Positions 10,675-23,307 of a stretch of 23,431 nucleotides of DNA are shown in pieces. Numbering within the stretch: position 1 is the first letter of the stretch; each line of letters starts with the position of its first letter. The translations under genes were made by a program, and so were the position numbers. The notes beneath the pieces are model-generated. The model ran no database searches, was not told where the DNA came from, and worked only from the letters and a program-made list of their open reading frames with translations. Source of the stretch: a virus; the IMG/VR virus record IMGVR_UViG_3300037504_000067, positions 1-23,431 of that record; one strand, given 5' to 3'.

Positions 10675-10942
10675 TTTGTCCTCCTTCCATTTCGGACTCG
10701 AGTTGTTCTCTAAGCATATCTATTATGGCAGAGTACCTATCAAGCACATCCAGCTGCCCCTGAATGTACTCCACACCTCTCACATACGTAGGTTTACCAT
10801 CCTGGCTGAGCCATAAAGAATCCTTAGGCGCACTCTTAAGCGCCGCTACAGCTTCATCCCGCTGTCTATTTACAGATTCCTGTATGTACCTCCAGATTGG
10901 CTCTTCCTCAAATCTCTGTAGTGATCCAAGATCAAATCTCAT
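10658..10942 (-). CDS. Small protein between portal and scaffold (94 aa)
   Basis: The ATG at 10942 overlaps the portal stop (ATGA), with GGAGGAGGAG before it; the end overlaps the scaffold start by 17 bases. The protein is mainly helical: ESVNRQRDEAVAALKSAP, then VEYIQGQLDVLDRYSAIIDM and a charged tail. There is a WLSQDGKPTYVRGVEY hairpin-like section between the two helices. No catalytic motif. Coupled to portal and scaffold, it may be a head-assembly accessory protein. I do not recognise the family. Confidence 0.78.
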   Translation of the reverse strand: MRFDLGSLQRFEEEPIWRYIQESVNRQRDEAVAALKSAPKDSLWLSQDGKPTYVRGVEYIQGQLDVLDRYSAIIDMLREQLESEMEGGQNVNGQ

Positions 10943-12819
10943 AACGCTCCTCCTCCCAGTGGCGCTAAGTTACCTAATTGAGCCTGCTGATCAACCTGAT
11001 CATCAGGAGCTACTTGTGTCTGCACATTGCCTCCTTTCTGTATAAAATCATTAACATTTCGTGCACCCATAGCTCGAGCCACATGCTTAAAGATTCTAGC
11101 CATATCAAACTGTGCTCCTAGCTCAGGCTGGGCCGCCATTATCTGAAACAGTTGTATCCACGATTGAGTATCCGTACTACTCGGCGTTGTTCCATCGTGA
11201 GGCATAACGTCAAACCCCACTTGCAGTTTGTCGGGAGATACCTTTGCATACGAATCATAGCCGTATTCCTGAACCAGCTGTTCTGCCATATCCCCTTCTA
11301 TCTTAACTCTCTCTTCTCTGTTCATATACTGTTGTGTATTGCAAGCCATGATTGTAGCTATATCAGCATGTGCTTGCATCCCGCTGATCATTGCTGTAGT
11401 CTCAAGTCGAGATAACGCACTTGACATAACACCTTGGGCTTCTGTCGCACTGACTCTCTCAGAAGTTCGTCTTCGCACCCCCTTAACCGCATCAACTGCT
11501 CCGCTTGAAAGGTCCATCAAGTTCATACTTGTCATAATGTCGTTGATGTGATTTTGCGTTATATCAGTAACATTCAACTGTTGCACTACATTCTCTACAC
11601 CACGACCCCAGGCCTGTGATCTTAATCTTATGATCTTTCCCTCTGATGGATTCTTCAAGTCGTTAACATTAACCATGAAGGGATCGACGATCAGCATGTC
11701 GTTTATTGCCTTTCGTACATTAGCCACGTGAGATGTGAACATAAAGTCGATGGTCTTCTGGAGGCCCATCGAAGTCTCTAGTATTGATGTTGGCGTAATA
11801 GTATGTCCATCAACATTAGGAACGTCAACTGCAACTGGGAACATTCCATGAAAAGCATCAAGCCTCTCTGCTCTCGTCAGTATCTTATCCCCAACCATTG
11901 AGAATATCCAGGTCTCAGGCTCATCACTAGGTCCAAGCTCCCATTCACTAGGAACCACCTTAACGTACATTGTGACGGTATCAAGTTGTCCATCAGGGGT
12001 CGGAGATCGCCGTTCTCGCTGCCCTGTTCTTGTTCGACGACCAGGAGGATCCTCAAAATACTGTGATAGTCGCCTACTTCCTATGTCCTTTACATACTGG
12101 GCATTGAACACAGTAGGATCACCATTAACATTGGCATCTGCCTCCTCTTGAAGTAATTGCGCCAAAGTAGTTCTATCTCCCCATCCTACAAACTCCCCGT
12201 CCTGTAGTCTATCAATAGGCACTGTTGTATCAGGTAGGAAGTTGTATGGGTCGATGTTTAGAAGCTCAGTCCCCTCAATGAATTTGTCCTGAGGGATTCG
12301 TCCACCAACTCCATCATCTCCCCAAACTCGTCGTTTCTTCGAGGTCCAGCGTAAGGCCACTGGCCCAATACCATATGCAAAGGCATCTCTCCACATCAAG
12401 TACAAACGCAACGCAGCCTTGAACCGTCTACTTTGTACTTCAACTACTCGCTCAAGCAGTGCTGTTCCAGCGACATCTTCATCACCCCACGGCTCAAAGC
12501 GAAAGATAGGACTTTGCAGAAATGCGGCTGACATATACGACAGCAGGATTTGAAGAGTAGCATAGGTAGTCGGGACTACTATACGGACCGGTTTACGAAA
12601 GTCATTGTTGTAAACCTTCTTTTCATCCTTATCCAAGACTTCGTAAGCCGTTAGGGATTTATCAATAGACTCCCAATCAGACCTTCTAGCTCCAATCATA
12701 CCCCTTGACTCTTTAGCTCGGGTAGTTAATTCTTGTATGATCTTCTCATGCGTCTCTGAACCAGGCTGGAGGTCCAATCCGTCTGGATAATCATAATCAT
12801 ATTTTTCGTTTAAAAGCAT
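10939..12819 (-). CDS. Portal protein (626 aa)
   Basis: The protein should form the dodecameric ring through which DNA enters and leaves the capsid. The N-terminal part has the typical sequence of a portal of P22/podovirus type: helices with RSDWESIDKSLTAYEVLD, then PVRIVVPTTYATLQILLSYM, a region FRFEPWGDED, and LYLMWRDAFAYGIGPVALRW. This is followed by a wing-like beta region and a C-terminal set of helices (RTSERVSATEAQGVMSSALS, EERVKIEGDMAEQLVQEYGY) forming stem and crown. The C-terminus is Gln/Gly-rich and probably flexible. Length is normal for this type. AAGGA precedes the ATG. Neighbours (terminase upstream, scaffold and capsid downstream) support the call. Confidence 0.88.
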   Translation of the reverse strand: MLLNEKYDYDYPDGLDLQPGSETHEKIIQELTTRAKESRGMIGARRSDWESIDKSLTAYEVLDKDEKKVYNNDFRKPVRIVVPTTYATLQILLSYMSAAFLQSPIFRFEPWGDEDVAGTALLERVVEVQSRRFKAALRLYLMWRDAFAYGIGPVALRWTSKKRRVWGDDGVGGRIPQDKFIEGTELLNIDPYNFLPDTTVPIDRLQDGEFVGWGDRTTLAQLLQEEADANVNGDPTVFNAQYVKDIGSRRLSQYFEDPPGRRTRTGQRERRSPTPDGQLDTVTMYVKVVPSEWELGPSDEPETWIFSMVGDKILTRAERLDAFHGMFPVAVDVPNVDGHTITPTSILETSMGLQKTIDFMFTSHVANVRKAINDMLIVDPFMVNVNDLKNPSEGKIIRLRSQAWGRGVENVVQQLNVTDITQNHINDIMTSMNLMDLSSGAVDAVKGVRRRTSERVSATEAQGVMSSALSRLETTAMISGMQAHADIATIMACNTQQYMNREERVKIEGDMAEQLVQEYGYDSYAKVSPDKLQVGFDVMPHDGTTPSSTDTQSWIQLFQIMAAQPELGAQFDMARIFKHVARAMGARNVNDFIQKGGNVQTQVAPDDQVDQQAQLGNLAPLGGGAL

Positions 12820-12828
12820 TTCTATTCC

Positions 12829-14355
12829 TTATGATTCGGCAATGTAAAGTAAGTCTATTCTAATTGACCCAACATCTGCCATTAGGGTTAAATTAGCATC
12901 TGATGCATCGTGCCTCTGAAAAGTCAACACAATGTTTGATGATGAAACTCCTGGTTTAATAAATACAGGAGTACCACTGTTATTCTCAGATTGATTAGGC
13001 ATAACAGATACTACAGCTTGACCTAGGTATAGATTACTTATAGTTAGCTCTTTACCATCTGAATCAAGCGTAAAACCGTCAACAGTATCCCCTTTGCCTA
13101 TATTATCAGTAACAGCAACATTACCTCCATTCCAGAAACTACTAACTGTACACTTAATAGTATCCGCATTCGTTCCGTCTTCAATTGTTAGATAGGAGTG
13201 TCTTATCTTTCTATTGTTGGCTCCATCAACTCCTAAATACGCATGAACATGACCAGTGTCCGATTTGCCACTTAGCAGCGAATCAACTTCGCTTTCTTGG
13301 TAATAACGGTCGTCTAATTGTCCACCATCTAGCTCCGTTTCTGTATAATACCTATCGTCATGATCATGTCCAGTATCTGATTTAGCCGCCAGCAGATTAT
13401 CAACTTCTGTCTGCGTATATTTATCTAGATCGCTTATGTCAAGCTCAACTAATGCTCGACTCTCCCAGTCAACACCATCAGCTACTAGCACATTACGATT
13501 GGTTGGCGTTGAAGTATTAACGTCATCTAGATCAGTTAACTCTTCAGCAACCATAGCATCAATCTCAGCCTCAGTATAGTACCGAGTATCTAGTTGGCCT
13601 CCATCCAATTCAGTTTCAGTATAGTATCTATCATCGTGTGTATGCCCAGAAGCAGCTTTGCCAGCCAGTAGATTGTCTACTTCTACCTGTGTATACTTAT
13701 CAAGATCACTTATATCCAACTCCACTAATGCCCTACTAGTCCACTCACTCCCATCTGCCATCAACGCATTGCGATCGGTTGGTGTAGAGTCTGCAACGTC
13801 ACTAAGATCTGACAGTTCATCCGCACCAGAGGTAGCCAATTCACTAAGAGTTTTAGTTCCAGCTGTTGGATCATTAAATTTTAAGTCGCTTCCATCTCTA
13901 AATACACTTACATCTGAATCTAAAAAATATAAAGCCCCGTTCAGATTAATAAAACCATTCTGGTATCTTCCTCCAATTGCTACCCATTTACCACCAACTC
14001 CATCAACGTAGAAAGGAGAATTTTGTAGTGTTGTTTCAGCATCATCCCAAGCATATATTGTATATCGGTCTGGAGCCGCTGCTTGATAAGCAACAATAAT
14101 AGACCCATTCTGGCTTCTTCCAATAGCATTCAACTCAACAGGCGCATCAATACTAAAAACTTCAACCGAGGTTATGATGTTTTCTAGGTCCACAAGCCTA
14201 ACTGTGTGATAGTCATGTGTAGGAGCTTCCTCTACTCTAATAGGACCCTCAGACCGAAATGCTAGGAAATTAAGAGTATCATCATCTGCATAAGCCTTGG
14301 ACGAATCAAAGAAAAATGGTCCTTTAGTTCCAATCCAATATTTAATAGTGCTCAT
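12829..14355 (-). CDS. Tail fibre with tandem repeats (508 aa)
   Basis: The N-terminal 170 residues form a beta-rich head, with a segment FYVDGVGGKWVAIGGRYQNG common in phage fibres. Residues about 181-271 and 273-365 are two near-identical repeats of about 92 residues. Each contains LVELDISDLDKYTQ, then an HxH motif (H238/H240, H330/H332) in HDDRYYTETELDGGQL; a third HxH is H369/H371. In T4-type fibres such HxH motifs hold metal ions along a trimeric shaft. The C-terminal 130 residues are beta-rich and may be the receptor-binding tip. It follows terL across a gap holding palindrome copy 2. The role in host adsorption is inferred from the repeats. Confidence 0.85.
   Translation of the reverse strand: MSTIKYWIGTKGPFFFDSSKAYADDDTLNFLAFRSEGPIRVEEAPTHDYHTVRLVDLENIITSVEVFSIDAPVELNAIGRSQNGSIIVAYQAAAPDRYTIYAWDDAETTLQNSPFYVDGVGGKWVAIGGRYQNGFINLNGALYFLDSDVSVFRDGSDLKFNDPTAGTKTLSELATSGADELSDLSDVADSTPTDRNALMADGSEWTSRALVELDISDLDKYTQVEVDNLLAGKAASGHTHDDRYYTETELDGGQLDTRYYTEAEIDAMVAEELTDLDDVNTSTPTNRNVLVADGVDWESRALVELDISDLDKYTQTEVDNLLAAKSDTGHDHDDRYYTETELDGGQLDDRYYQESEVDSLLSGKSDTGHVHAYLGVDGANNRKIRHSYLTIEDGTNADTIKCTVSSFWNGGNVAVTDNIGKGDTVDGFTLDSDGKELTISNLYLGQAVVSVMPNQSENNSGTPVFIKPGVSSSNIVLTFQRHDASDANLTLMADVGSIRIDLLYIAES
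13260..13815 (-). repeat. Two tandem ~92-codon repeats inside the tail fibre gene
   Basis: The codons for residues about 181-271 (13815-13543) and 273-365 (13539-13261) encode matching segments: a TPTxRNxLxADG block, the LVELDISDLDKYTQ block, the HDDRYYTETELDGGQL block and a final acidic segment. Codons differ between the two copies at many third positions, so the duplication is not recent, or one copy has diverged under protein-level selection. Confidence 0.8.
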
Positions 14356-14367
14356 AACAATTCAACC

Positions 14368-14387
14368 TTTTTGTCCCAAATTGGGAC
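14368..14387 (-). promoter_or_regulatory. Palindromic intergenic element, copy 2
   Basis: On the minus strand this reads GTCCCAATTTGGGACAAAAA. It starts nine bases after the terL stop codon, and its A-tract ends 12 bases before the tail fibre ATG. The A-tract joins GG to form a weak ribosome binding site (AAAAAGG). The 41-base gap holds nothing else. See copy 1 for the possible roles. Confidence 0.75.
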
Positions 14388-14396
14388 ACCTGCTCA

Positions 14397-15962
14397 TTAC
14401 ACAATTTGCCAGCCTTCCATTGCCGGTTCGTTTTCAAGCTGCTCATATTCTCGCTCAATCTTTTCAGGATCGTCCGGATTGGCTTGAGGAGAAAAATACC
14501 TATTGCCTCTTTCCAGCAACTCAGTTATGTATGCAGCTGCGTCCATAATATCCCACAGCTTGGATCGAGGATAACTAATCAGTTGCTGCTCATAGGGGCC
14601 AGCTCCAATCTTGTTGTGGTAAATCAACCCTTGTCGATAATATGGAATAAGAGTTGATATCCTAGCCTTTTTGCCTCCCTGAGCTCCAGAGAATTCACCC
14701 TTGCCACTTCTGGCATGTAAGTCGATAAATTCAGCGCGAACAGAACGGCGGACCATCTCATTCACGATCGGATAAGTGACATACTCATTCAGGCCCGTAA
14801 CCTCAGCGGCTACGACGACTGCTCTGTACTGTTGAGCTTTATCCAGTAGCATCTTGATAAACTCATCTGGATGTAGATAATACCCTCCTGCTTCCCTCAT
14901 ATACAGAGCATTAGTCTCAATGTCGATACCCCACACAGCATACGCGCTCTGTGCATTCTGGGGATTAGCAGTCTTAGCTGGATCACCTATAACTACTGTC
15001 TCAATCTTACCGACCTTGACTCGTTTAATAAACTCCTCATCGTCCTCACTATAGTATTGGAAATACTCATTCTTGAATGCTGCTGCCTCACGCGAGATCG
15101 GTTGACTCATATTCTCACGTGCGAAGATATCCATTATATGAAGCCGGCGATGTTCAGCCAACTCATCATCTAACTCACGCTGGCTCTTGAACTCTGGAGC
15201 CAACGTCTTATAATTCTCGTCACAAATAGACAGCTGAACAGATTTCCACTGTGGGCTATCCAGTAACTCCACAAGCAAACTGTCTTCATGCTTAATCGTG
15301 TCGATGTAGATAAACTTGTAGGGCTGGTTCCCAGGCGGTTTTGCTTTCAACACCTGCGCGTAGAACCAGCGCTTCCACTTCATTCGCTGTTCTTCATTCT
15401 CAATCTCCTCGTCGTCCTCTAGGTCATCAATAATAAACAGGTCGGGCCTGAACCGAATCCAGTTCAGACCACGAACCTGCTGACCGGCACCACGAGGGAG
15501 GACCAACGTTCTGCCGTTTGCTACCCATGCTTTCTTCGAGAACCTATCATCTAACATCTTGTCTTCGCGTGCCTTGATGTTTCCGAAATCCTCGCGTATC
15601 TTCGAAGATGAGGTTAACGAAAGTTTTATGTTTTCCGTCTGGAACTCAGCAGCCGTGGCTGTTTTTGAAATATAACAGATAAATCGGTATTTCTCAAAGA
15701 TGATTCCAGACTTTGCTATTAACCTTGCAATGCTAGTTTTTCCCATACCACGAGGAGCCGCGATAGCCACGTGTCGGTAGGGACCATCTACCGCTTCGAA
15801 AATCTGCTCGTGTAGATGAGAGAACGGGTAATAGAACTCCTCATCAAAGTAAATCTCCGCGAGAACTCTACTGTCGGCACTGGCCAAGGCCAGCATATCC
15901 TTATAGTTCTCATCGACTGGAGTAATCTGATCGGGTGCGACTATTTCAGGCTGATATAACAT
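14397..15962 (-). CDS. terL: Terminase large subunit (521 aa)
   Basis: The ATPase motor and nuclease that packages and cuts phage DNA. The ATPase domain has Walker A APRGMGKTS (residues 69-77, K75) and Walker B LFIIDDLEDD (175-184), with a QVRGLNW segment before it. The nuclease domain starts with VVIGDPAKT, whose D327 fits the first metal-binding Asp of the RNase H-like fold; VVVAAEVTG and the C-terminal WDIMDAAAYITELL supply the later acidic positions. Length is typical. The ATG comes six bases after the stop of the beta-helix gene. The small subunit is about 6.4 kb upstream, which is further than usual. Confidence 0.93.
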   Translation of the reverse strand: MLYQPEIVAPDQITPVDENYKDMLALASADSRVLAEIYFDEEFYYPFSHLHEQIFEAVDGPYRHVAIAAPRGMGKTSIARLIAKSGIIFEKYRFICYISKTATAAEFQTENIKLSLTSSSKIREDFGNIKAREDKMLDDRFSKKAWVANGRTLVLPRGAGQQVRGLNWIRFRPDLFIIDDLEDDEEIENEEQRMKWKRWFYAQVLKAKPPGNQPYKFIYIDTIKHEDSLLVELLDSPQWKSVQLSICDENYKTLAPEFKSQRELDDELAEHRRLHIMDIFARENMSQPISREAAAFKNEYFQYYSEDDEEFIKRVKVGKIETVVIGDPAKTANPQNAQSAYAVWGIDIETNALYMREAGGYYLHPDEFIKMLLDKAQQYRAVVVAAEVTGLNEYVTYPIVNEMVRRSVRAEFIDLHARSGKGEFSGAQGGKKARISTLIPYYRQGLIYHNKIGAGPYEQQLISYPRSKLWDIMDAAAYITELLERGNRYFSPQANPDDPEKIEREYEQLENEPAMEGWQIV

Positions 15963-15968
15963 TTTTAC

Positions 15969-18143
15969 CTACCAGGCTATCAGTCCGGCCTTTACGTTAA
16001 TGGTGTCAGACGGTGATAATGATGCAGTACTATTTAAGGTTAATGCAATAAGATCATCCTTAACATGTCTAGCTGTTGGATCGAGCCTCATCGTTGTGCG
16101 AAACTTTGGGTACGAAGCATTAAGGACTGTCTGAAACCCAGTACTTGACACTCCATTAGCCTCATACCTAACTTTTATAGTATCTGCATCAATCGAATCA
16201 GATAACCATACCCACATGCCTATGAGGTCCATATCGAATGGTACAGGATACTTAACAGAAAACCCATCAAAGGTCATTGCTGTTGTACTCTGTCCTGCAG
16301 CAAGACTGTCATGCTCCCAGACTATCGGTAAGTGCATGGTTCCAAGGAACTCAGCATTGGTCTGCCCTGTAACTCTAAGGTCTTGTACATAGTGACTAAA
16401 CCCATGATTTGTGTTACTTATTCTCAACGAGTCAACATTCCGTATAGCAAAGTTCCATTTATAACGGAGGCTATCATTACAATTTAGGCTGATATTATGT
16501 TCAAAAGTTAATGATACCACAATGTAACAATAAAAATCCGTACCTGATGTATCTGCGCTAAGTGCGTTCTTATAAAATCTATTGTTAGTAACAACAAGAT
16601 TTGACATCATCTGGTTTGGAATAAAGTTACCGCTTGCGTCCCCCGTGTATAGGTGGTTGTTCGTACTCAGCAGATAAACTGTATCTTGTGAGGCAGAATG
16701 GCTCGTGTCTGAGATTACACTATCAAACCCTGCACTTACCAAATAGATCCCATGATCCTGATTCTCCTCCAACACATTGTTGTCAAGAATCACTCCGTAG
16801 GTATTACCTTGTACGGCGATTCCAGACTTACTTGACTCTCGAACAGTGTTTCCTCTACACTCCACATAGTCTATATTTCGAAGGACTATACTCCCAGCAT
16901 ACGCATGTGAGTCATCCAAGCACGACTTAACAGTATTGTTTAGAATTTTCAGTCCTCTGATTGTCGCTACTCCAGCATCTTGGAAAGTCACTGTATATAT
17001 GGCAGGACCCATTCTATTAATAAATAGCGAGTTTGTTATAGCTACGTTGCTGATTTTGGATACATACGAGGCGTTGTTCTCAGGGGAGTTAATCTCAACT
17101 CCACCTGCATGAACAGTCGTAGCGTTTACATACGTACCACGACCAAAGATACAGTTGTCTATGATTACATTATCAACAGAGTCATCCAACCCAGAGGCCA
17201 ACTCAATATCTATACCTGCAGGCCAACCTCCATTGATCGTAGAGTTTACAATCTTAATATTCTTTCCGCCTGTGATCGCGATTCCATTTCTACCATACTG
17301 TCCAGGTACCGAAAAGTCCTGGATATTAACATCAATTGTCACGTTATCAATCAAGATATTGTCGCATCCACCTCCAATGTATATCCCATCCCCTGACATA
17401 TTTTTAATCCGGAGGTTCTTGATTGTGATATTCTTGGCGTTAGTAAGAAGAATTCCATGATCAAATTCACTCTGATAGGAGTTAGTGGTATCCACATTCC
17501 CATCGAGCAAGGCGCCTTGTCCATCTATGACTACATTAGAATCTCCGTCTACCTTGAATATAGAAATTCCATAGGAAGGAATACCTCCACTCTTGGTGTA
17601 ATCCAACTCGTAGCCAGCATTAAGTTGCAGATATGTTCCAGTTGTCAACTGTATAATATCTTCATTCGAGTCCGGTGTGAACGTCTCCAAGATAGAATCT
17701 GCCAACACAATAGTACCACCGAACGGACTGGTCGTTGAATCGTAGACCGCTTCTCTAAGAGTATTGTAATATCGCCGCCAGCGAACTCCATACTCCTCAT
17801 CAGTGGTCCCATCGATCCGCTTCCCCGATGTTGTATCTGACCAGTCCGTTCGCATGGTGTAGGAGGAACCCCCAGCTATGTCCTCTTGTAGCACATAATA
17901 ACCAGTCTTTGTTACTTCAAACTCATGCATCAACAACGTAGAGTTGTAGGTCCCACTGATAGTATCACCAGTCGTGTATGGTCCAACGCCTACCAGTCGG
18001 GCTGTAGAAATAGAGCTGGACATTCTTATTCTATATGGCGTCGTTTTGGACGTTCCTAGCACTATGTGAATATTACAAGCTATGATCAGTCCAATAAGTG
18101 CTCCAATCACAACTCTATACGTTCTATCTATCGATGTCATCAT
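15969..18143 (-). CDS. Parallel beta-helix protein with N-terminal hydrophobic segment (724 aa), probable tailspike
   Basis: GGAG precedes ATG 18143, and the gene overlaps its neighbour by 20 bases. Residues about 10-31 form a hydrophobic segment (VVIGALIGLIIACNIHIVLG) that would act as a signal peptide or membrane anchor, which is odd for a tail protein. From about residue 200 to 540 the chain has regular short repeats of a right-handed parallel beta-helix (NITIKNLRIKNMSGDGIYIG, then NGIAITGGKNIKIVNSTING), as in pectate lyase-like and NosD-like proteins and phage depolymerase spikes. The C-terminal part is beta-rich and may trimerise. It probably binds or degrades surface polysaccharide; substrate and catalytic residues cannot be told from sequence. 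Confidence 0.8.
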   Translation of the reverse strand: MMTSIDRTYRVVIGALIGLIIACNIHIVLGTSKTTPYRIRMSSSISTARLVGVGPYTTGDTISGTYNSTLLMHEFEVTKTGYYVLQEDIAGGSSYTMRTDWSDTTSGKRIDGTTDEEYGVRWRRYYNTLREAVYDSTTSPFGGTIVLADSILETFTPDSNEDIIQLTTGTYLQLNAGYELDYTKSGGIPSYGISIFKVDGDSNVVIDGQGALLDGNVDTTNSYQSEFDHGILLTNAKNITIKNLRIKNMSGDGIYIGGGCDNILIDNVTIDVNIQDFSVPGQYGRNGIAITGGKNIKIVNSTINGGWPAGIDIELASGLDDSVDNVIIDNCIFGRGTYVNATTVHAGGVEINSPENNASYVSKISNVAITNSLFINRMGPAIYTVTFQDAGVATIRGLKILNNTVKSCLDDSHAYAGSIVLRNIDYVECRGNTVRESSKSGIAVQGNTYGVILDNNVLEENQDHGIYLVSAGFDSVISDTSHSASQDTVYLLSTNNHLYTGDASGNFIPNQMMSNLVVTNNRFYKNALSADTSGTDFYCYIVVSLTFEHNISLNCNDSLRYKWNFAIRNVDSLRISNTNHGFSHYVQDLRVTGQTNAEFLGTMHLPIVWEHDSLAAGQSTTAMTFDGFSVKYPVPFDMDLIGMWVWLSDSIDADTIKVRYEANGVSSTGFQTVLNASYPKFRTTMRLDPTARHVKDDLIALTLNSTASLSPSDTINVKAGLIAW

Positions 18144-18321
18144 CGTAGTCTCCAGTAATAATAGGTTTATCCTGGTAGACTACAACATCTACACAGGATC
18201 CATCAACTGTATCTGCTGGATCAGGTTCAGTTATTTCCAGCATTGAGTATTCTCGCAGCCATCTGCTTGTCCTTCGGCGATTGGCTGATCTAGTAGAATC
18301 CTTTGGTCCAAAAGTAGCCAC
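18124..18321 (-). CDS. Small hypothetical protein (65 aa), GTG start
   Basis: The gene starts with GTG at 18321, overlapping the upstream stop by one base (TAGTG), with AAGGAGG ten bases before it. The N-terminus is basic (RSANRRRTSRWLREY) and the C-terminus acidic (GDYDDDIDR). The middle has a run of Asp, Val and Thr ending in VDVVVYQDKPII, which looks like a beta hairpin. There is no membrane segment. The end lies inside the start of the beta-helix gene, suggesting coupling. It may be a small structural or assembly partner of the spike. I do not recognise it. Confidence 0.65.
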   Translation of the reverse strand: MATFGPKDSTRSANRRRTSRWLREYSMLEITEPDPADTVDGSCVDVVVYQDKPIITGDYDDDIDR

Positions 18322-18653
18322 TAGTCTGAAACCTCCTTATTGTTTATAACAGGGCCTTCCATCAGCCTAATAGGTTCAGCTCCAGATTTAGTCAACCTGA
18401 TAGAATACCAAGCCCTACTAAAATCTAAGTTCAGCTGAGTTGCCGGTATATCAACTGTAATTATTCGAGACGTGGCAGTGATGTTTGTCAGAGTTGCCAA
18501 TGCAGTAGCACTTTCTTTAGTGGTCCTAAACTTCATAGTAAAGGTATATGAGCTTGGATCAATTATGTTTCCGTTACAGTCTTTCCATACAATTGTAAAG
18601 TTAAGACCTGTGTTCTGTTCGATGTGCAGGGTTACCTGTGCAGCTCTTGCCAT
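18321..18653 (-). CDS. Small Ig-like/BppU N-domain-like structural protein (110 aa)
   Basis: The frame could start at GTG 18662 or at two adjacent ATG codons (18656, 18653); the ribosome binding site AAGGTGG is best spaced for 18653. The sequence has the strand pattern of small phage baseplate or fibre-attachment domains: LHIEQNTGLNFTIVWKDCNG, then IIDPSSYTFTMKFR, RIITVDIPATQLNLD, and WYSIRLTKSGAEPIRLMEGP. 'Trp-Lys-Asp-x-x-Gly' followed by an SYTFTMKFR strand is common in proteins coded just before fibres. It is probably an adaptor or base domain for a receptor-binding protein, such as the beta-helix spike two genes downstream. This is inferred from pattern and order. Confidence 0.7.
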   Translation of the reverse strand: MARAAQVTLHIEQNTGLNFTIVWKDCNGNIIDPSSYTFTMKFRTTKESATALATLTNITATSRIITVDIPATQLNLDFSRAWYSIRLTKSGAEPIRLMEGPVINNKEVSD

Positions 18654-18663
18654 CATAACCACC

Positions 18664-18683
18664 TTTTTGTCCCAATTTGGGAC
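18664..18683 (-). promoter_or_regulatory. Palindromic intergenic element, copy 3
   Basis: On the minus strand this reads GTCCCAAATTGGGACAAAAA. It begins six bases after the stop of the 80-aa membrane protein gene, and its A-tract continues directly into GGTGG, the ribosome binding site of the Ig-like protein gene. As in copies 1 and 2, the palindrome lies between stop codon and ribosome binding site with nothing else in the gap. Confidence 0.75.
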
Positions 18684-18689
18684 ATTTCC

Positions 18690-18932
18690 TCATTTATTTT
18701 TTTCAGCCAACTCTTTAAGAAGGTCTTTTATTTCTGTGAGTGTCTTGTCTACATGCTTGGAGTACATATGAAACAGTTCCTTTGAAACATATCTGCCGTT
18801 TAAGGTAGATATCTGAATAAAATCATCATCCTTGTTGCTTTTCCTCCAGGTGTAAATCTTAATGAACGTAAGGGCCACTGTTATTACTGTTACGCCAAGT
18901 GCTATTCCATCTCCAACCGTTAAGTGTTCCAT
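18690..18932 (-). CDS. Small N-terminal membrane protein with helical tail (80 aa)
   Basis: AAAGG lies seven bases before ATG 18932. Residues about 8-27 form one transmembrane helix (GIALGVTVITVALTFIKIYT), followed by basic residues WRKSNK. A soluble helical part comes next, with FHMYSKHVDKTLTEIKDLLK that would form a coiled coil. This is the layout of small phage lysis accessory proteins (holin- or spanin-like) and of some superinfection-related proteins. There is no lipobox. It lies just after a terminator and before palindrome copy 3. A lysis or envelope role is inferred from topology only. Confidence 0.72.
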   Translation of the reverse strand: MEHLTVGDGIALGVTVITVALTFIKIYTWRKSNKDDDFIQISTLNGRYVSKELFHMYSKHVDKTLTEIKDLLKELAEKNK

Positions 18933-18964
18933 TCAATACCTTTCGTTCCTAGCCTCTTGTTCAC

Positions 18965-19011
18965 AAAAAGGCCAGGGAGCACACACGAGAGTGCTCCTCC
19001 GCTCCCTGACC
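18965..19011 (-). terminator. Intrinsic terminator after the 87-aa gene
   Basis: On the minus strand GGTCAGGGAGC pairs with GCTCCCTGGCC (11 bp with one wobble), with a 20-base loop, and TTTTTG follows. The loop itself contains GGAGCAC, which can pair with GTGCTCC overlapping the 3' arm, so a second structure competes with the terminator stem. It divides the cassette between terS and terL into two parts. Confidence 0.85.
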
Positions 19012-19029
19012 GATGGAAGGAGGAGGCTC

Positions 19030-19293
19030 CTAACGCAACTCAAACCCGCCTTCCTGTGCAGTATCTTCACACCAGGCCATTGCCTTAGCCACAAGTTGAT
19101 CATCCACCTTGGTGTCTGTACGACCAGCGTATTTTTGGCCAAACTCGTCGAGTGCCACATAGCACAGTTTGACCCCAGAGCGTTGATCGTCATTCAGCGA
19201 GGTACCATCAATAGCTTCGTCCGCCAACTTGAAGATGAACTCAAGAGCGATTGGGATGAACAAATCTCCCATTCCTTCTAAATAACTAATCAT
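19030..19293 (-). CDS. Hypothetical protein (87 aa) before terminator
   Basis: GGAG precedes ATG 19293, and the start overlaps the previous gene by eight bases. The first 27 residues are mostly hydrophobic and acidic (MISYLEGMGDLFIPIALEFIF), possibly an amphipathic or membrane-associated helix. A soluble helical region follows, with SGVKLCYVALDEFGQKYAG and a second helix around DQLVAKAMAWCEDTAQ. There is no known motif. Its neighbours are small membrane proteins, and it ends the transcript that stops at 18965. It may be part of a lysis or envelope module, but I do not recognise it. Confidence 0.72.
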   Translation of the reverse strand: MISYLEGMGDLFIPIALEFIFKLADEAIDGTSLNDDQRSGVKLCYVALDEFGQKYAGRTDTKVDDQLVAKAMAWCEDTAQEGGFELR

Positions 19294-19666
19294 TTTGTTT
19301 CTCCTTCCGTTTCTTCATGATGAGTTTCACTAATTGAACAGTGGCTCGGAACCAAGCAAGAAGGGCTGTTCCAAGGGTATCTCCCTTGTTGGCCTCGCCA
19401 CTGCTCTGCTTTTTCTTGGCGTCAAAGAGACCTAACCCTTCGACTAGTCCGCCTAGCGCTCCTACTCCTGCTCCAACTAACACCTGGCCACCGGCAATCA
19501 GAGCTGTCGCCGCTGCTAGGAGGGTCGCTCCAACTGTGCGTTTCAGCCCATGTTTGCGGTACCAAGGTCTACGATCATCTTTTGGCAGGGGATGCTTCTC
19601 TTCGTAGGTTTCGATAATCCTACCTTTCCATTCACGCATCCTAGGTTGTCCACTTACCTGTACCAC
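19286..19666 (-). CDS. Membrane-active Gly/Ala-rich protein (126 aa), GTG start
   Basis: The start is GTG 19666, chosen because AGGAGG lies six bases before it, inside the end of the upstream gene (13-base overlap). An internal ATG at 19639 lacks a good ribosome binding site. A basic N-terminal part (WKGRIIETYEEKHPLPKDDR, WYRKHGLKR) precedes a Gly/Ala-rich hydrophobic stretch, about residues 45-80 (VGATLLAAATALIAGGQVLV, GAGVGALGGLVEGLGLF). A second hydrophobic segment with ALLAWFRATVQLVKLIM is followed by a Lys-rich tail. Two possible membrane segments and a basic C-terminus fit a holin-like or pore protein. Function is not proven by any motif. Confidence 0.72.
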   Translation of the reverse strand: MVQVSGQPRMREWKGRIIETYEEKHPLPKDDRRPWYRKHGLKRTVGATLLAAATALIAGGQVLVGAGVGALGGLVEGLGLFDAKKKQSSGEANKGDTLGTALLAWFRATVQLVKLIMKKRKEKQND

Positions 19667-20208
19667 GGAACACCTCCTGGATTAAACATATGAAAAGTAG
19701 CAAATACATAATTGCCACTCAGGACTCTGCTGTCGCTACCAAACTCAATAACTACCCAGAAATATCTGGTAGGTCTGAAGCCTGTACCGAGGATTCCGAA
19801 GTTACCTCCATAGGTGCCATTAGTAGTTGTCGCTGTATATGCTGTATTGTCACTAGCATATACAGTTAGGTTCTTCACATATTGAGCACTGGAAAACGTA
19901 TTGTAGTTCGACTGATACACCGTCAGGCTGTCTACATCAAGGGAATCACCAGCAGCAACTGTGTCTGCAAAAGTAATCTCGAAGTCGATAAACTCCCATA
20001 CTTCAAGAGGACCTAGAACAAGTGAATCAGCCCCGTTGTAGTGAAGAGTGTCGGGAGAAATCAAGCTGCTAGGACTTCCAACTGTGTAGGAATTATTAGC
20101 CAGCCATTGATTAACTCTTTGTTTGTATCCTGCAAACTCTGTGTTCGCTTCCCACTGCGCGAACAGTAAAGCAGGGAAAAGCAGTAGAAATAGAATAGTC
20201 TTTTTCAT
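19654..20208 (-). CDS. Secreted beta-rich protein with Sec signal peptide (184 aa)
   Basis: The N-terminus is a textbook signal peptide: MKK, then the hydrophobic ILFLLLFPALLF, and a cleavage site A|QW at residues 17/18. The mature part is rich in Asp, Ser, Thr and Tyr and in short strands (SLVLGPLEVWEFIDFEITF, FGILGTGFRPTRYFWVVIEF), suggesting a beta-sandwich or lectin-like fold. There are no Cys pairs, lipobox or catalytic motif. It sits between a small membrane protein and a holin-like protein. It may be exported to the periplasm or cell surface during infection, or be a fibre-associated protein. The family is not recognised. Confidence 0.78.
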   Translation of the reverse strand: MKKTILFLLLFPALLFAQWEANTEFAGYKQRVNQWLANNSYTVGSPSSLISPDTLHYNGADSLVLGPLEVWEFIDFEITFADTVAAGDSLDVDSLTVYQSNYNTFSSAQYVKNLTVYASDNTAYTATTTNGTYGGNFGILGTGFRPTRYFWVVIEFGSDSRVLSGNYVFATFHMFNPGGVPWYR

Positions 20209-20219
20209 TTCTAGGTTCC

Positions 20220-20477
20220 TTAGCTATTTAAAATTCCTTCAAATAATTCATATAAAGCTAATGCTAAAAACAGGCCTACAAAGCCACCTGCTAGGTCATA
20301 AAATGTATCTGGTCTGATCCACCAACTGAGGAAGTTACCAGACGCTAGGGCTTGGTCAAACTCTAGTCCGACTATAGCCAGTCCCCAAACGAACCATCTT
20401 GGATATCCACAACGGTCGAGGAAGACCAGGATGAAGAAGCCTGCTAGGTATAAGATGTTGGATGTGTTTATGCTCAT
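20220..20477 (-). CDS. Small polytopic membrane protein (85 aa), VanZ-like or holin candidate
   Basis: The start codon follows the fibre stop within a few bases (TAACATG); the ribosome binding site is weak, so coupling with the fibre gene is likely. Hydrophobic segments are at about residues 7-20 (NILYLAGFFILVFL), 28-40 (WFVWGLAIVGLEF) and 61-79 (DLAGGFVGLFLALALYELF). The last part, D-x-x-x-D-L-A-G-G-x-x-G, resembles the final helix of VanZ-like proteins. Phages often encode a short VanZ-like or holin protein near lysis genes. No enzyme role is indicated. Function as a holin or as a membrane partner of the exported fibres is inference. Confidence 0.75.
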   Translation of the reverse strand: MSINTSNILYLAGFFILVFLDRCGYPRWFVWGLAIVGLEFDQALASGNFLSWWIRPDTFYDLAGGFVGLFLALALYELFEGILNS

Positions 20478-20478
20478 G

Positions 20479-22080
20479 TTATGGTGTCCAGAAAGTGTCT
20501 AATTGTGCCTTTACGGTGTTCCAGACGACCTTTCCTAAAGAGTCGCCTGTGACGGAGAAGATCATGTCTTGTAACCACACTCCGCCTGTGCCAATGGTCA
20601 GGCTGTCGGAGGCTGTGACGACGTTGGCTTGTACGTCGGCTTTCAGGGTGTCGGCAGCTATGTTGCCGTTAACGTCCAACATTTCATCCGGGTCTTTACC
20701 AATCCCAACATATCCCAGACGCTCAATATTTATGCGCTCAAATGGATTCCCCCCATAGTAAGTGTCAAAACACAAGTCGCCACCACTATTTAGTCTCAAT
20801 CCCCAAAAATGATCAGATACTGTAGACCCCTGTAACCCCAGAAATGCATTGCTCTTATTATATGTATTGGCCACAGCATTTGTGAACAAGCCATTGCCAG
20901 TTACATCTAATGCTTGTGTTGGTTCGCTCGAGCCTATAGCAAACTGTCCCGTTTGGCTGAACGTAAATGACCGAGTTCCAGGAGAGTCAGCACTTACAGA
21001 TGCTCCATTCGCTGCATACAATGTGAGAGAATAGGGATCGCCAAGCATGCCCATGCGCCAATCTTTTACGCCAGTGCCTTGATGCCAATTAATCCAAGCC
21101 CAATCAGCGTCGGCTGTTTTATTAATATTTAAAAAGTCAAGACTATCCGTCCCAACACTAGATATGACCAACTTACTCTCAGACATATCGTCGGTTGGTT
21201 GTCCACCAATACTGATTCCGCTATTGTAGAGATATATCCCCTTTCCATTATCACCCTTAACGTACATGGCATGCGATCCAGACGACGTAAAATACCCACC
21301 ATAACTACCAGAAGCACCTTTTAAGCCATAACCGCTTGTGGATGTCCCCTCTATGGCGTTGGTTGTGCTTGTTGTTACACCTATTCCTTTTCTTGAACTA
21401 TCACCAACAGACACAGTAAGTTGATAGCTAAGTGCATTTGGATCACCTATTCCCGGCCCTACAATCATTTTTCCGGTAACGTCATCCAAGCGTACAATAT
21501 CACCTATTCCAGGCAGATAACACAACACAGGATTCCCAGACGTTGCGTCCGTTCCCATGTCCCAGTCAAATGTTGATCCGGTATAAAATCCTATGCCGAG
21601 AGCGGTATCTTGCGTGTATCGCTTTATCTTTAATCCGCGATTCCCACTTGACGGGTTTGGGTCTTCCGTAAATCTAAGTTCTAATGTGTCAGATGTACCA
21701 TACACCAGAGATTTCAGGCTGTCCTCAAACTGAGGGACAATTTTAGTTCCCGCAATAGCGGCGCTTGCGTTCACATCTGCATTGACAACAGCCCCGTCTG
21801 TAATATTTGAAGACCCAACCGCATTTGCCGCAATCTCCCCGGTGCTAGTCAAATCATCTGCGCCATTCCATTTAACCGACAATGTATTATTAGACTCCGT
21901 GATCGTCTCCTCATCTGCTCGAATCGAATCTGCTTGAAAGCTATCCAGGGAGTCGCTAATCCAACTGCGGAATGTACCAGGTTGGGTATATGGTGGATAG
22001 ACCTTGATTTGTGCAAACCCCTCGGCTACACACCACAGAAGCACAAATCCTATGCATATCACTGTTAGCTTCGATTTCAT
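20479..22080 (-). CDS. Fibre-like protein with Sec signal peptide (533 aa)
   Basis: The ATG overlaps the previous stop (TGATG), with AAGGAG nine bases before. The N-terminus is a signal peptide: MKSK, hydrophobic LTVICIGFVLLWCVAEGF, then A|Q at about residues 23/24. The mature part opens with short repeats of the type GEIAANAVGSSNITDGAVVN, found in trimeric fibres and adhesins. A Gly/Ser-rich section (TSTSGYGLKGASGSYGGYFT) follows, and then two blocks with the pattern 'IG...P...LDVTGNG' and 'VGIGKDPDEMLDVNGNIAAD' typical of fibre tips and of proteins with a C-terminal chaperone domain. That chaperone (S74) domain is not present here. It probably recognises or coats the cell surface; export is unusual. 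Confidence 0.8.
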   Translation of the reverse strand: MKSKLTVICIGFVLLWCVAEGFAQIKVYPPYTQPGTFRSWISDSLDSFQADSIRADEETITESNNTLSVKWNGADDLTSTGEIAANAVGSSNITDGAVVNADVNASAAIAGTKIVPQFEDSLKSLVYGTSDTLELRFTEDPNPSSGNRGLKIKRYTQDTALGIGFYTGSTFDWDMGTDATSGNPVLCYLPGIGDIVRLDDVTGKMIVGPGIGDPNALSYQLTVSVGDSSRKGIGVTTSTTNAIEGTSTSGYGLKGASGSYGGYFTSSGSHAMYVKGDNGKGIYLYNSGISIGGQPTDDMSESKLVISSVGTDSLDFLNINKTADADWAWINWHQGTGVKDWRMGMLGDPYSLTLYAANGASVSADSPGTRSFTFSQTGQFAIGSSEPTQALDVTGNGLFTNAVANTYNKSNAFLGLQGSTVSDHFWGLRLNSGGDLCFDTYYGGNPFERINIERLGYVGIGKDPDEMLDVNGNIAADTLKADVQANVVTASDSLTIGTGGVWLQDMIFSVTGDSLGKVVWNTVKAQLDTFWTP

Positions 22081-22460
22081 CAGAACTGGCTCCTTCGGCG
22101 AAGACCGACTTGATAAAACGTGAGGGTATCAGCTACACTGTTGGATTTGAATTGAAGCCGAGTGATTGGTGGACTGGCTCCAAACTCTACCTGCTGGTAC
22201 TCGCTGAGAGGTATCCAACTCATGCTGCCGATTGTAGTTGTATCGGCTCCACTAATAAACCGAATCGAGCCGGCCCCTCCTGTGAACCAGCACGTCATCG
22301 AATACCACTGATCTGAAATACTGGTCCAGGTAGAATCATGCACTGTTGTAGTTACTGAATCAGTTGCTACAGTCCAATAGTGTCGAACATTAAGCTGAGC
22401 TGTTGTCTGTGTCACCATTGCTGTTAGGATCAACAGCCCCATCAACATTAACTTCTTCAT
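22080..22460 (-). CDS. Small secreted protein with Sec signal peptide (126 aa)
   Basis: GAGG lies nine bases before ATG 22460. The N-terminal 22 residues form a signal peptide with MKK, the hydrophobic LMLMGLLILTAMV and a site TTA|Q. The mature part of about 105 residues has a beta-rich pattern (WYSMTCWFTGGAGSIRFI, QVEFGASPPITRLQF, ADTLTFYQVGL), consistent with a small jelly-roll or sandwich domain. The first 71 bases overlap the end of terS in another frame. It is followed by the signal-peptide fibre with a one-base overlap, so the two are probably made together and may form a complex. I do not recognise the family. Confidence 0.78.
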   Translation of the reverse strand: MKKLMLMGLLILTAMVTQTTAQLNVRHYWTVATDSVTTTVHDSTWTSISDQWYSMTCWFTGGAGSIRFISGADTTTIGSMSWIPLSEYQQVEFGASPPITRLQFKSNSVADTLTFYQVGLRRRSQF

Positions 22461-22881
22461 ACTCTGTGTCCTCTGCTGTTCGCATATAGCCTTTGCGAAT
22501 AGCTATCTCTTTGATTTCTTCAATTGTCTGTGTAGTAATACGACCCGAGTGCCGCATATCAACTTCTCGCCGAACAGGCCGGTGGCCACGATCGAGGGCT
22601 TCAACCGCCGCTTTGATCTTATCAGAGTGTTTTGCTCCTGGATCTTCCATCACATCCTTGAGAACCCCAACCGCCGTTGGTGTCAGTTTTCGCAACTCAA
22701 CCTCGATGTCCACGGCCTCTTTGTTGGCCGCAGCTTGCATGATCTCCAGCTGCCGCTGAACAATCCGACTGTTCCTGATGTTCGATACGGTCTGGACGTC
22801 CACGCCACAGGCGTCTGCAATATCCACGTTTTTCAGGCCCGCAAAGATCATCCGTGTGATCCGCTGGGCACTGTCCGTCAT
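22390..22881 (-). CDS. terS: Terminase small subunit-like DNA-binding protein (163 aa)
   Basis: Residues about 5-40 form a helix-turn-helix (AQRITRMIFAGLKNVDIADA, then CGVDVQTVSNIRNSRIVQ) of the terminase small-subunit kind that recognises the packaging site. A helical oligomerisation part follows (about 45-100, with LTPTAVGVLKDVMEDPG), and the C-terminus is acidic and flexible. I used ATG 22881, although its ribosome binding site is poor. An in-frame TTG at 22950 has GGAGAG upstream and would add 23 residues including TYDLKT. Further extension to 23211 would translate palindrome copy 4 and is unlikely. It is the first gene after the leader, which fits the start of a late operon. TerL lies 6.4 kb downstream. 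Confidence 0.75.
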   Translation of the reverse strand: MTDSAQRITRMIFAGLKNVDIADACGVDVQTVSNIRNSRIVQRQLEIMQAAANKEAVDIEVELRKLTPTAVGVLKDVMEDPGAKHSDKIKAAVEALDRGHRPVRREVDMRHSGRITTQTIEEIKEIAIRKGYMRTAEDTEYEEVNVDGAVDPNSNGDTDNSSA

Positions 22882-23307
22882 GGTCTTCAAATCATACGTG
22901 CGGTTGCCTGTGCGGCGACGGTCTTGGGTTGTAAGAGCCTGGCTATTCAAGTTGGGAGTCTCTCCAAGTTTGTGGGTTTGGTAGTTTGGTCTCTGGTGGA
23001 TTGTACAAAATTCCGACCGGAATGTCAAGAACATTTTCCCGCATTTTGCCGCACAGCTCGCATTTTGCTGCCCAGAATGTAGCCCAACTACTGTAACCTC
23101 AACCTTAGCAACCGTCCCAAAATGGGACAAAAACGAGGGTAATTTGTGCGAAAAAACACAAAATTTTCTAAATCGAAAGTCATGGGGATGGTTCTGTATT
23201 GAGCGAAACACCTAGCAATTCCCCTAGACCGGAGCTTTGTTTTTCTGTACGTCAGTTGGGCTGGGTTGGTGTGAGCAGAGAGTGAATGGATGTTCAGTTA
23301 TAGACAT
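22882..23307 (-). other. Leader/intergenic region upstream of terS
   Basis: Nothing in these 426 bases looks like a conserved gene. They contain palindrome copy 4 (23114-23133, opposite orientation), a 5-bp hairpin with an A-rich loop at 23144-23161 (TTGTG/CACAA), and the possible TTG start of terS at 22950. Since the upstream transcript ends at 23308, the promoter for the late genes should lie here, but no clear -35/-10 or Bacteroidota-type TTTG/TAnnTTTG pair stands out. Confidence 0.55.
23114..23133 (+). promoter_or_regulatory. Palindromic element, copy 4 (opposite orientation)
   Basis: Here the plus strand reads GTCCCAAAATGGGACAAAAA, the same as copy 1 but inverted relative to the genes. 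The A-tract runs into CGAGGG on the plus strand, which resembles a ribosome binding site before GTG 23146 and an 18-codon frame. The position in the leader before terS suggests control of the late operon or of a divergent transcript. Confidence 0.72.

What the first reader, a model, noticed from the sequence alone, without database searches (positions are those of the whole stretch)
15969..22460. Phage fibre and accessory proteins with Sec signal peptides, three ending A|Q
The products at 22080-22460, 20479-22080 and 19654-20208 have clear signal peptides with Gln at +1 after Ala (TTA|Q, GFA|Q, LFA|Q), and the 724-aa beta-helix protein has an N-terminal hydrophobic segment. Fibres and spikes of tailed phages normally assemble in the cytoplasm, so export is unexpected. 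A|Q is the pattern known as the Bacteroidota 'Q-rule' for signal peptidase I, which points to the host group. The proteins might be displayed on or released from the infected cell, for example as depolymerase, receptor mask or superinfection block, rather than built into virions.
Basis: partly seen in the sequence, partly recalled or inferred. Interest (0 to 1): 0.68.

Follow-up and report, generated by a model that had tools for sequence, protein, structure and literature searches.

The report
Phage fibre proteins with export signals
A virus of bacteria carries fibre-like and spike-like proteins with the address label bacteria use to send proteins out of the cytoplasm, and many relatives do the same at the same place in the genome, which is unexpected because phage fibres are normally built inside the cell.

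Summary
All four ORFs lie at the stated coordinates. The 724-aa beta-helix protein is borderline.

The feature belongs to a large podovirus-like clade; 541 TerL relatives were found in IMG/VR. Signal-peptide (SP) genes sit almost only between TerS and portal: 24/80 large and 26/349 small genes there, against 2/362 downstream and 0/40 large genes in four control phages. One spike family keeps the SP in all 15 N-termini, followed by a conserved N-domain and a hypervariable C-part, as in tailspikes. The window 724-aa protein and its L040 relative share that architecture.

Gln at +1 is concentrated in the window's own subclade (9/14 against 10/59, p=9e-4). This fits a Q-rule host, probably Bacteroidota, although no host was identified.

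So export is well supported by sequence. Destination is not. I favour late-made exported fibres/depolymerases acting in the envelope or outside on host glycans (0.5). Post-lysis virion attachment is the main rival (0.22). Some bacterial secreted pectate-lyase-like proteins share a spike module and carry SPs. No SignalP run or proteomics was possible.

The parts
22080..22460 (-). 126-aa small beta-rich protein with Sec signal peptide (TTA|QL)
   Evidence: homologues L040 122 aa (SP TEA|QQ) and L045 133 aa (hydrophobic N-terminus) at 25-27% identity
22398..22460 (-). signal peptide of the 126-aa protein, residues 1-21
20479..22080 (-). 533-aa fibre-like protein with Sec signal peptide (GFA|QI)
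   Evidence: (weak PHROG minor tail protein hit, E 3.8e-4); fibre-type sequence repeats seen by eye; no relative found in viral contigs
22012..22080 (-). signal peptide of the 533-aa protein, residues 1-23
20220..20477 (-). 85-aa membrane protein, holin-like by size and hydrophobicity only
   Evidence: no family hit
19654..20208 (-). 184-aa orphan with Sec signal peptide (LFA|QW)
   Evidence: no relative found in viral contigs
20158..20208 (-). signal peptide of the 184-aa protein, residues 1-17
19286..19666 (-). 126-aa membrane-segment protein (GTG start), possible lysis/holin gene
18690..18932 (-). 80-aa protein with N-terminal membrane segment
18321..18662 (-). 113-aa LtfC-like beta-sandwich / phrog_1084 protein, no signal peptide
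15969..18143 (-). 724-aa beta-helix tailspike-like protein with N-terminal hydrophobic segment (possible SP VLG|TS)
   Evidence: N-domain 43% identical to L040 898 aa, C-part diverged
18054..18143 (-). candidate signal peptide / anchor of the 724-aa protein, residues 1-30
   Evidence: score 6.69
14397..15962 (-). terminase large subunit, anchor gene for the clade
   Evidence: phrog_38, 9e-64
12829..14355 (-). 508-aa tail-fibre-like protein without signal peptide (N-terminus IGTKGPFFFD)
22390..22881 (-). terminase small subunit, start chosen by size in relatives
10939..12819 (-). portal, right-hand border of the slot

Best explanation
The window and many relatives carry, between the small terminase gene and the portal gene, a variable cassette of late genes for host contact and lysis. 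Some of its fibre-like or spike-like products have genuine type I Sec signal peptides (shown by sequence, recurrence and conservation; cleavage itself is inferred). They are made late with the packaging and lysis genes, exported by the host Sec system, cleaved by its signal peptidase, and act in the envelope or outside the cell on host surface glycans or receptors (inferred). Likely tasks are binding or degrading the receptor or capsule so that progeny are released and not trapped, or blocking superinfection (inferred). A separate SP-less fibre, the 508-aa gene in the window, would be the ordinary virion fibre (inferred).
For: SP genes in slot vs all other genes: 50/429 vs 2/586, Fisher p=1.7e-17; large genes slot vs downstream p=2.9e-6. 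Of 38 complete slots, 22 have at least one SP gene and 16 a large one. Family A: SP in all 15 readable N-termini while SP sequence varies. Q at +1 follows the window subclade, as expected of cleaved leaders adapted to a host. Control phages T7, HTVC112P, P2559Y and the first 50 kb of crAss001: 0/40 large genes with SP. Tail fibre/spike similarity of SP proteins. Slot also holds peptidoglycan-hydrolase-like and holin-like genes. Glycosyltransferases lie beside the family A spike in L013, and bacterial proteins in polysaccharide-gene contexts share a spike module and carry SPs. An SP-less fibre cluster is widespread.
Against: No cell-biological evidence. No outer-membrane export signal found: no T9SS C-terminal domain by NCBIfam. 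The conserved N-domain and variable C-part also suit a virion-attached spike. Window slot has no glycosyltransferase. The window 533-aa and 184-aa proteins have no detected relatives, so conservation is shown only for the 126-aa and 724-aa proteins. Late expression is inferred from gene order only.
Confidence: 0.5

Rival explanations
1. The proteins are exported and cleaved but end up on the virion: spikes fold in the periplasm and join particles at or after lysis, an unusual assembly route.
For: Tailspike architecture with conserved N-domain and hypervariable C-part; tail spike / virion structural PHROG hits in SP proteins; location among packaging and structural genes.
Against: A separate SP-less fibre cluster is widespread in the clade. 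The family A N-domain was found only behind an SP, apart from weak partial hits to its later repeats in SP-less proteins, and had no isolate-phage match. No significant PDB match to a known virion-binding domain.
Confidence: 0.22
2. The hydrophobic N-termini are uncleaved membrane anchors, or the proteins serve lysis (spanin-like), with fibre resemblance incidental.
For: Slot contains holin-like and hydrolase-like genes. Several small SP genes look like lipoproteins (L036 195 aa, L042 141 aa, L023 160 aa). The window 724-aa segment is long and borderline.
Against: Large SP proteins resemble fibres and spikes, and family A has AxA-type sites just before the mature domain in nearly all members.
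Confidence: 0.13
3. They are secreted proteins acquired from bacteria (pectate-lyase-like or fibre-repeat surface proteins) with no dedicated phage role beyond a host benefit.
For: Bacterial proteins sharing a family A module carry SPs and lie beside polysaccharide genes.
Against: Recurrent placement in one slot across divergent phages and conserved N-domains argue for a phage role.
Confidence: 0.1
4. Artefact: chance hydrophobic N-termini or wrong starts.
For: Home-made rule, not SignalP; the E. coli PWM was weak on two of the three.
Against: Enrichment, conservation and controls.
Confidence: 0.03

Closest known systems
Beta-helix tailspikes of tailed phages (HK620 tailspike, phi29 gp12, crAss001 tailspike)
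   Same: Beta-helix body (Pfam Beta_helix), tailspike PHROG hits, conserved N-part with variable C-part, tailspikes top the PDB list for a low-confidence model of the 724-aa protein
   Different: Those are, to my knowledge, made without a signal peptide; the crAss001 tailspikes scored no SP
Bacteroidetes Q-rule Sec/SPI substrates (PMC5837995)
   Same: Gln at +1 after a type I site in three window proteins and in subclade relatives
   Different: Phage-encoded; host glutaminyl cyclase not seen; Q is not the rule in the rest of the clade
Phage-encoded exported envelope proteins such as the T5 Llp superinfection-exclusion lipoprotein (from memory)
   Same: Phage protein exported in the infected cell
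   Different: Llp is a small lipoprotein; these are large fibre or spike-like proteins with type I signals
Bacterial secreted pectate-lyase-like proteins near polysaccharide genes (L161, L162, L164)
   Same: Signal peptide plus a ~100-aa module shared with family A, at about 39-43% identity
   Different: In bacterial genome contigs, not next to TerL
Desulfofustis phage MD01 (OP947158)
   Same: Nearest named relative by TerL (41%), same TerS-TerL-portal-MCP gene set
   Different: Only one small lipoprotein-like SP gene, no large SP spike

Membership tests
Type I Sec (SPI) signal peptide | Positive n-region, uncharged hydrophobic core, small residues at -3 and -1 | tested here: met
   for the three; 724-aa protein borderline
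Type I Sec (SPI) signal peptide | Call by a standard predictor (SignalP) | not testable with these tools
   no predictor available; own rule only, weak E. coli PWM support
Type I Sec (SPI) signal peptide | Cleavage and export in the host | not testable with these tools
   needs experiment
Bacteroidetes Q-rule | Gln at +1 in most type I substrates | tested here: met
   3/3 clear SPs in window; subclade 9/14 vs 10/59 elsewhere
Bacteroidetes Q-rule | Host belongs to Bacteroidota and has glutaminyl cyclase | not testable with these tools
   no host link found; MAG hits unreliable
Beta-helix tailspike | Right-handed beta-helix body (724-aa protein) | tested here: met
   Pfam Beta_helix 5.8e-15; tailspike PHROG 2.2e-10
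Beta-helix tailspike | Conserved N-domain with variable C-part | tested here: met
   window vs L040; family A
Beta-helix tailspike | Recognisable virion-attachment domain | tested here: inconclusive
   family A N-domain model (pLDDT 82.9) has no significant PDB match
Beta-helix tailspike | Present in virions | not testable with these tools
   needs proteomics
Type IX secretion substrate | Conserved C-terminal secretion domain | tested here: not met
   no NCBIfam hit to such a domain in ten proteins
Lipoprotein (724-aa protein) | Lipobox conserved in relatives | tested here: not met
   window LIIAC, L040 LLIC with Ile at -1

The most novel reading that the evidence does not exclude
Receptor-binding spikes or fibres of a tailed-phage clade are exported by Sec, mature outside the cytoplasm and are added to virions at or after lysis, so that part of the virion is assembled outside the cytoplasm.
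Probability: 0.2. Interest if true: 0.85.

Novelty: new variant of a known kind. Interest (0 to 1): 0.6.

Why it matters
Phage receptor-binding proteins are taken to be cytoplasmic, and lack of a signal peptide has been read as supporting phage rather than bacterial-surface origin (PMC6199706, for DGR targets). A clade in which about 42% of complete slots carry a large signal-peptide gene challenges that rule of thumb. It raises a direct question: what does a phage gain by exporting a fibre or depolymerase? The +1 residue could also serve as a host clue for uncultured phages.

Tried and rejected
E. coli-trained PWM: too biased towards E. coli leaders, replaced by a rule. Close relatives of the 533-aa and 184-aa proteins in viral contigs: none. 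Relationship of the 126-aa protein to the small SP-less beta proteins (cluster 12): not supported (hhalign probability 0.5%). Lipoprotein reading of the 724-aa protein: lipobox not kept in L040. T9SS export: no domain found. Disulfide/Cys enrichment as a mark of periplasmic folding: no enrichment. Shared domain between SP and SP-less fibres of the same genome: only one weak pair, in L010. Peptidase_S74 in the window: none. Host from genome contigs: hits are MAG contigs of many phyla that look like whole phage contigs. Structure of the 724-aa protein: low confidence (pLDDT 49.6), so its matches are only suggestive. Literature searches gave no report of tailed-phage fibres with Sec signals, but the library holds open papers only.

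Full report
What is there. The window is a 23.4-kb IMG/VR virus record. All its main genes lie on the minus strand: TerS, a slot of nine or so genes, TerL, a fibre, portal, scaffold-like, major head protein and tail genes. The finding's four ORFs are at exactly the stated coordinates.

Signal peptides. A rule-based n/h/c test was checked on 25 E. coli signal peptides recalled from memory (22 detected on leader plus five residues), on E. coli K-12 genes, where most extra hits were membrane proteins, and on T7. An earlier PWM trained on E. coli alone ranked only the 184-aa leader high; I judge this a bias, but SignalP could not be run. The 724-aa beta-helix protein has a borderline segment (6.69).

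Recurrence. TerL found 34 and then 541 relatives in viral contigs, the best 80 of the latter kept. With a strict version of the rule (score, ATG and ribosome-binding site), and after removing near-duplicates, SP genes make up 24 of 80 large and 26 of 349 small genes between TerS and portal. Elsewhere the counts are 2 of 362 downstream, 0 of 58 upstream and 0 of 166 core genes (Fisher tests). Some further large slot proteins have plain leaders that the strict rule misses. Of 38 distinct complete slots, 22 have at least one strict SP gene and 16 a large one under the strict or relaxed rule. Control phages T7, HTVC112P, P2559Y and the first 50 kb of crAss001 have 0 of 40 large genes with SP.

Conservation. 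A spike family just upstream of TerL ('FxDIIVTSPxG', family A) has an SP-type leader in every readable N-terminus, 15 in the final alignment set. The leader sequences vary while n/h/c form and cleavage position hold. Behind the leader lie about 220 conserved residues and then a hypervariable C-part. The window 724-aa protein and L040 898 aa show the same pattern: 43% identity over the N-domain, diverged C-part, hydrophobic leader in both. The window 126-aa protein has two relatives at 25-27% identity, one with a clear SP and one with a hydrophobic N-terminus.

The +1 residue. On a TerL tree of 116 rows the window falls in a fully supported set of six (quick method, SH-aLRT; several long branches). 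In that set 9 of 14 leaders have Q at +1, against 10 of 59 elsewhere (p=9e-4). The rule allows several sites per leader, so the outside figure is, if anything, inflated. Bochtler et al. give a mean Q-value of 71% in Bacteroidetes and mostly below 9% in Chlorobi, but 77% in Ignavibacterium album (PMC5837995). This suggests a Q-rule host and that the leaders are adapted to it; it does not prove the phylum. The nearest named relative, MD01, is assigned to Desulfofustis by CRISPR (PMC10370329).

What the proteins are. L010 866 aa and L040 840 aa (SP proteins) hit virion structural and tail spike PHROGs, and L010 matches annotated tail fibres at about 43% over some 190 residues. L029 545 aa hits tail fibre PHROGs and has a fibre collar motif. 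Beta-helix bodies occur in several. The family A N-domain folds with good confidence (pLDDT 82.9) into beta repeats, without a significant PDB match. Its ~100-aa third unit recurs in bacterial proteins with SPs beside polysaccharide genes (L161, L162, L164) and in SP-less phage-like fibres. So the module alone does not decide between secreted enzyme and virion spike. In L013, glycosyltransferases lie just upstream of the spike.

Mechanism. Shown: leaders, recurrence, slot, architecture. Inferred: late expression, cleavage, destination. I favour action in the envelope or outside on surface glycans or receptors (0.5) because a separate SP-less fibre exists in the window and commonly in relatives, the slot also holds lysis-type genes, and secreted bacterial relatives share a module. 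Virion attachment after export (0.22) remains open. Literature searches in an open-access library gave no described precedent for tailed-phage fibres with Sec signals; absence there is weak evidence.

Noticed in passing
2249-2263, 14372-14386, 18668-18682, 23115-23127: Palindrome GTCCCAWWWTGGGAC occurs four times (a one-mismatch scan expects 0.01); three copies sit a few bases before the ribosome-binding site of minus-strand genes and are followed by AAAAAGG. Candidate regulatory element or mRNA hairpin.
   Followed up: partly
L036: 249-263, 15474-15488, 23059-23073: The same 15-base palindrome occurs three times in Desulfofustis phage MD01 and in none of the other loci fetched by then.
   Followed up: no
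L013: 2036-3037, 5477-7813; L008, L028, L078, L089, L090, L094, L102, L120: Glycosyltransferase family 2 genes, and in some B12/radical-SAM-like genes, lie in the same slot, in several beside the family A spike.
   Followed up: partly
L161, L162, L164, L165: Bacterial proteins with signal peptides share a ~100-aa module with the family A spike; several lie beside an aminotransferase or other polysaccharide-type genes.
   Followed up: partly
2267-2686: NlpC/P60-like ORF by eye, among tail genes.
   Followed up: no
L042: 3446-3871; L023: 13491-13973; L036: 36101-36688: Small signal-peptide genes that look like lipoproteins, possibly outer spanins.
   Followed up: no
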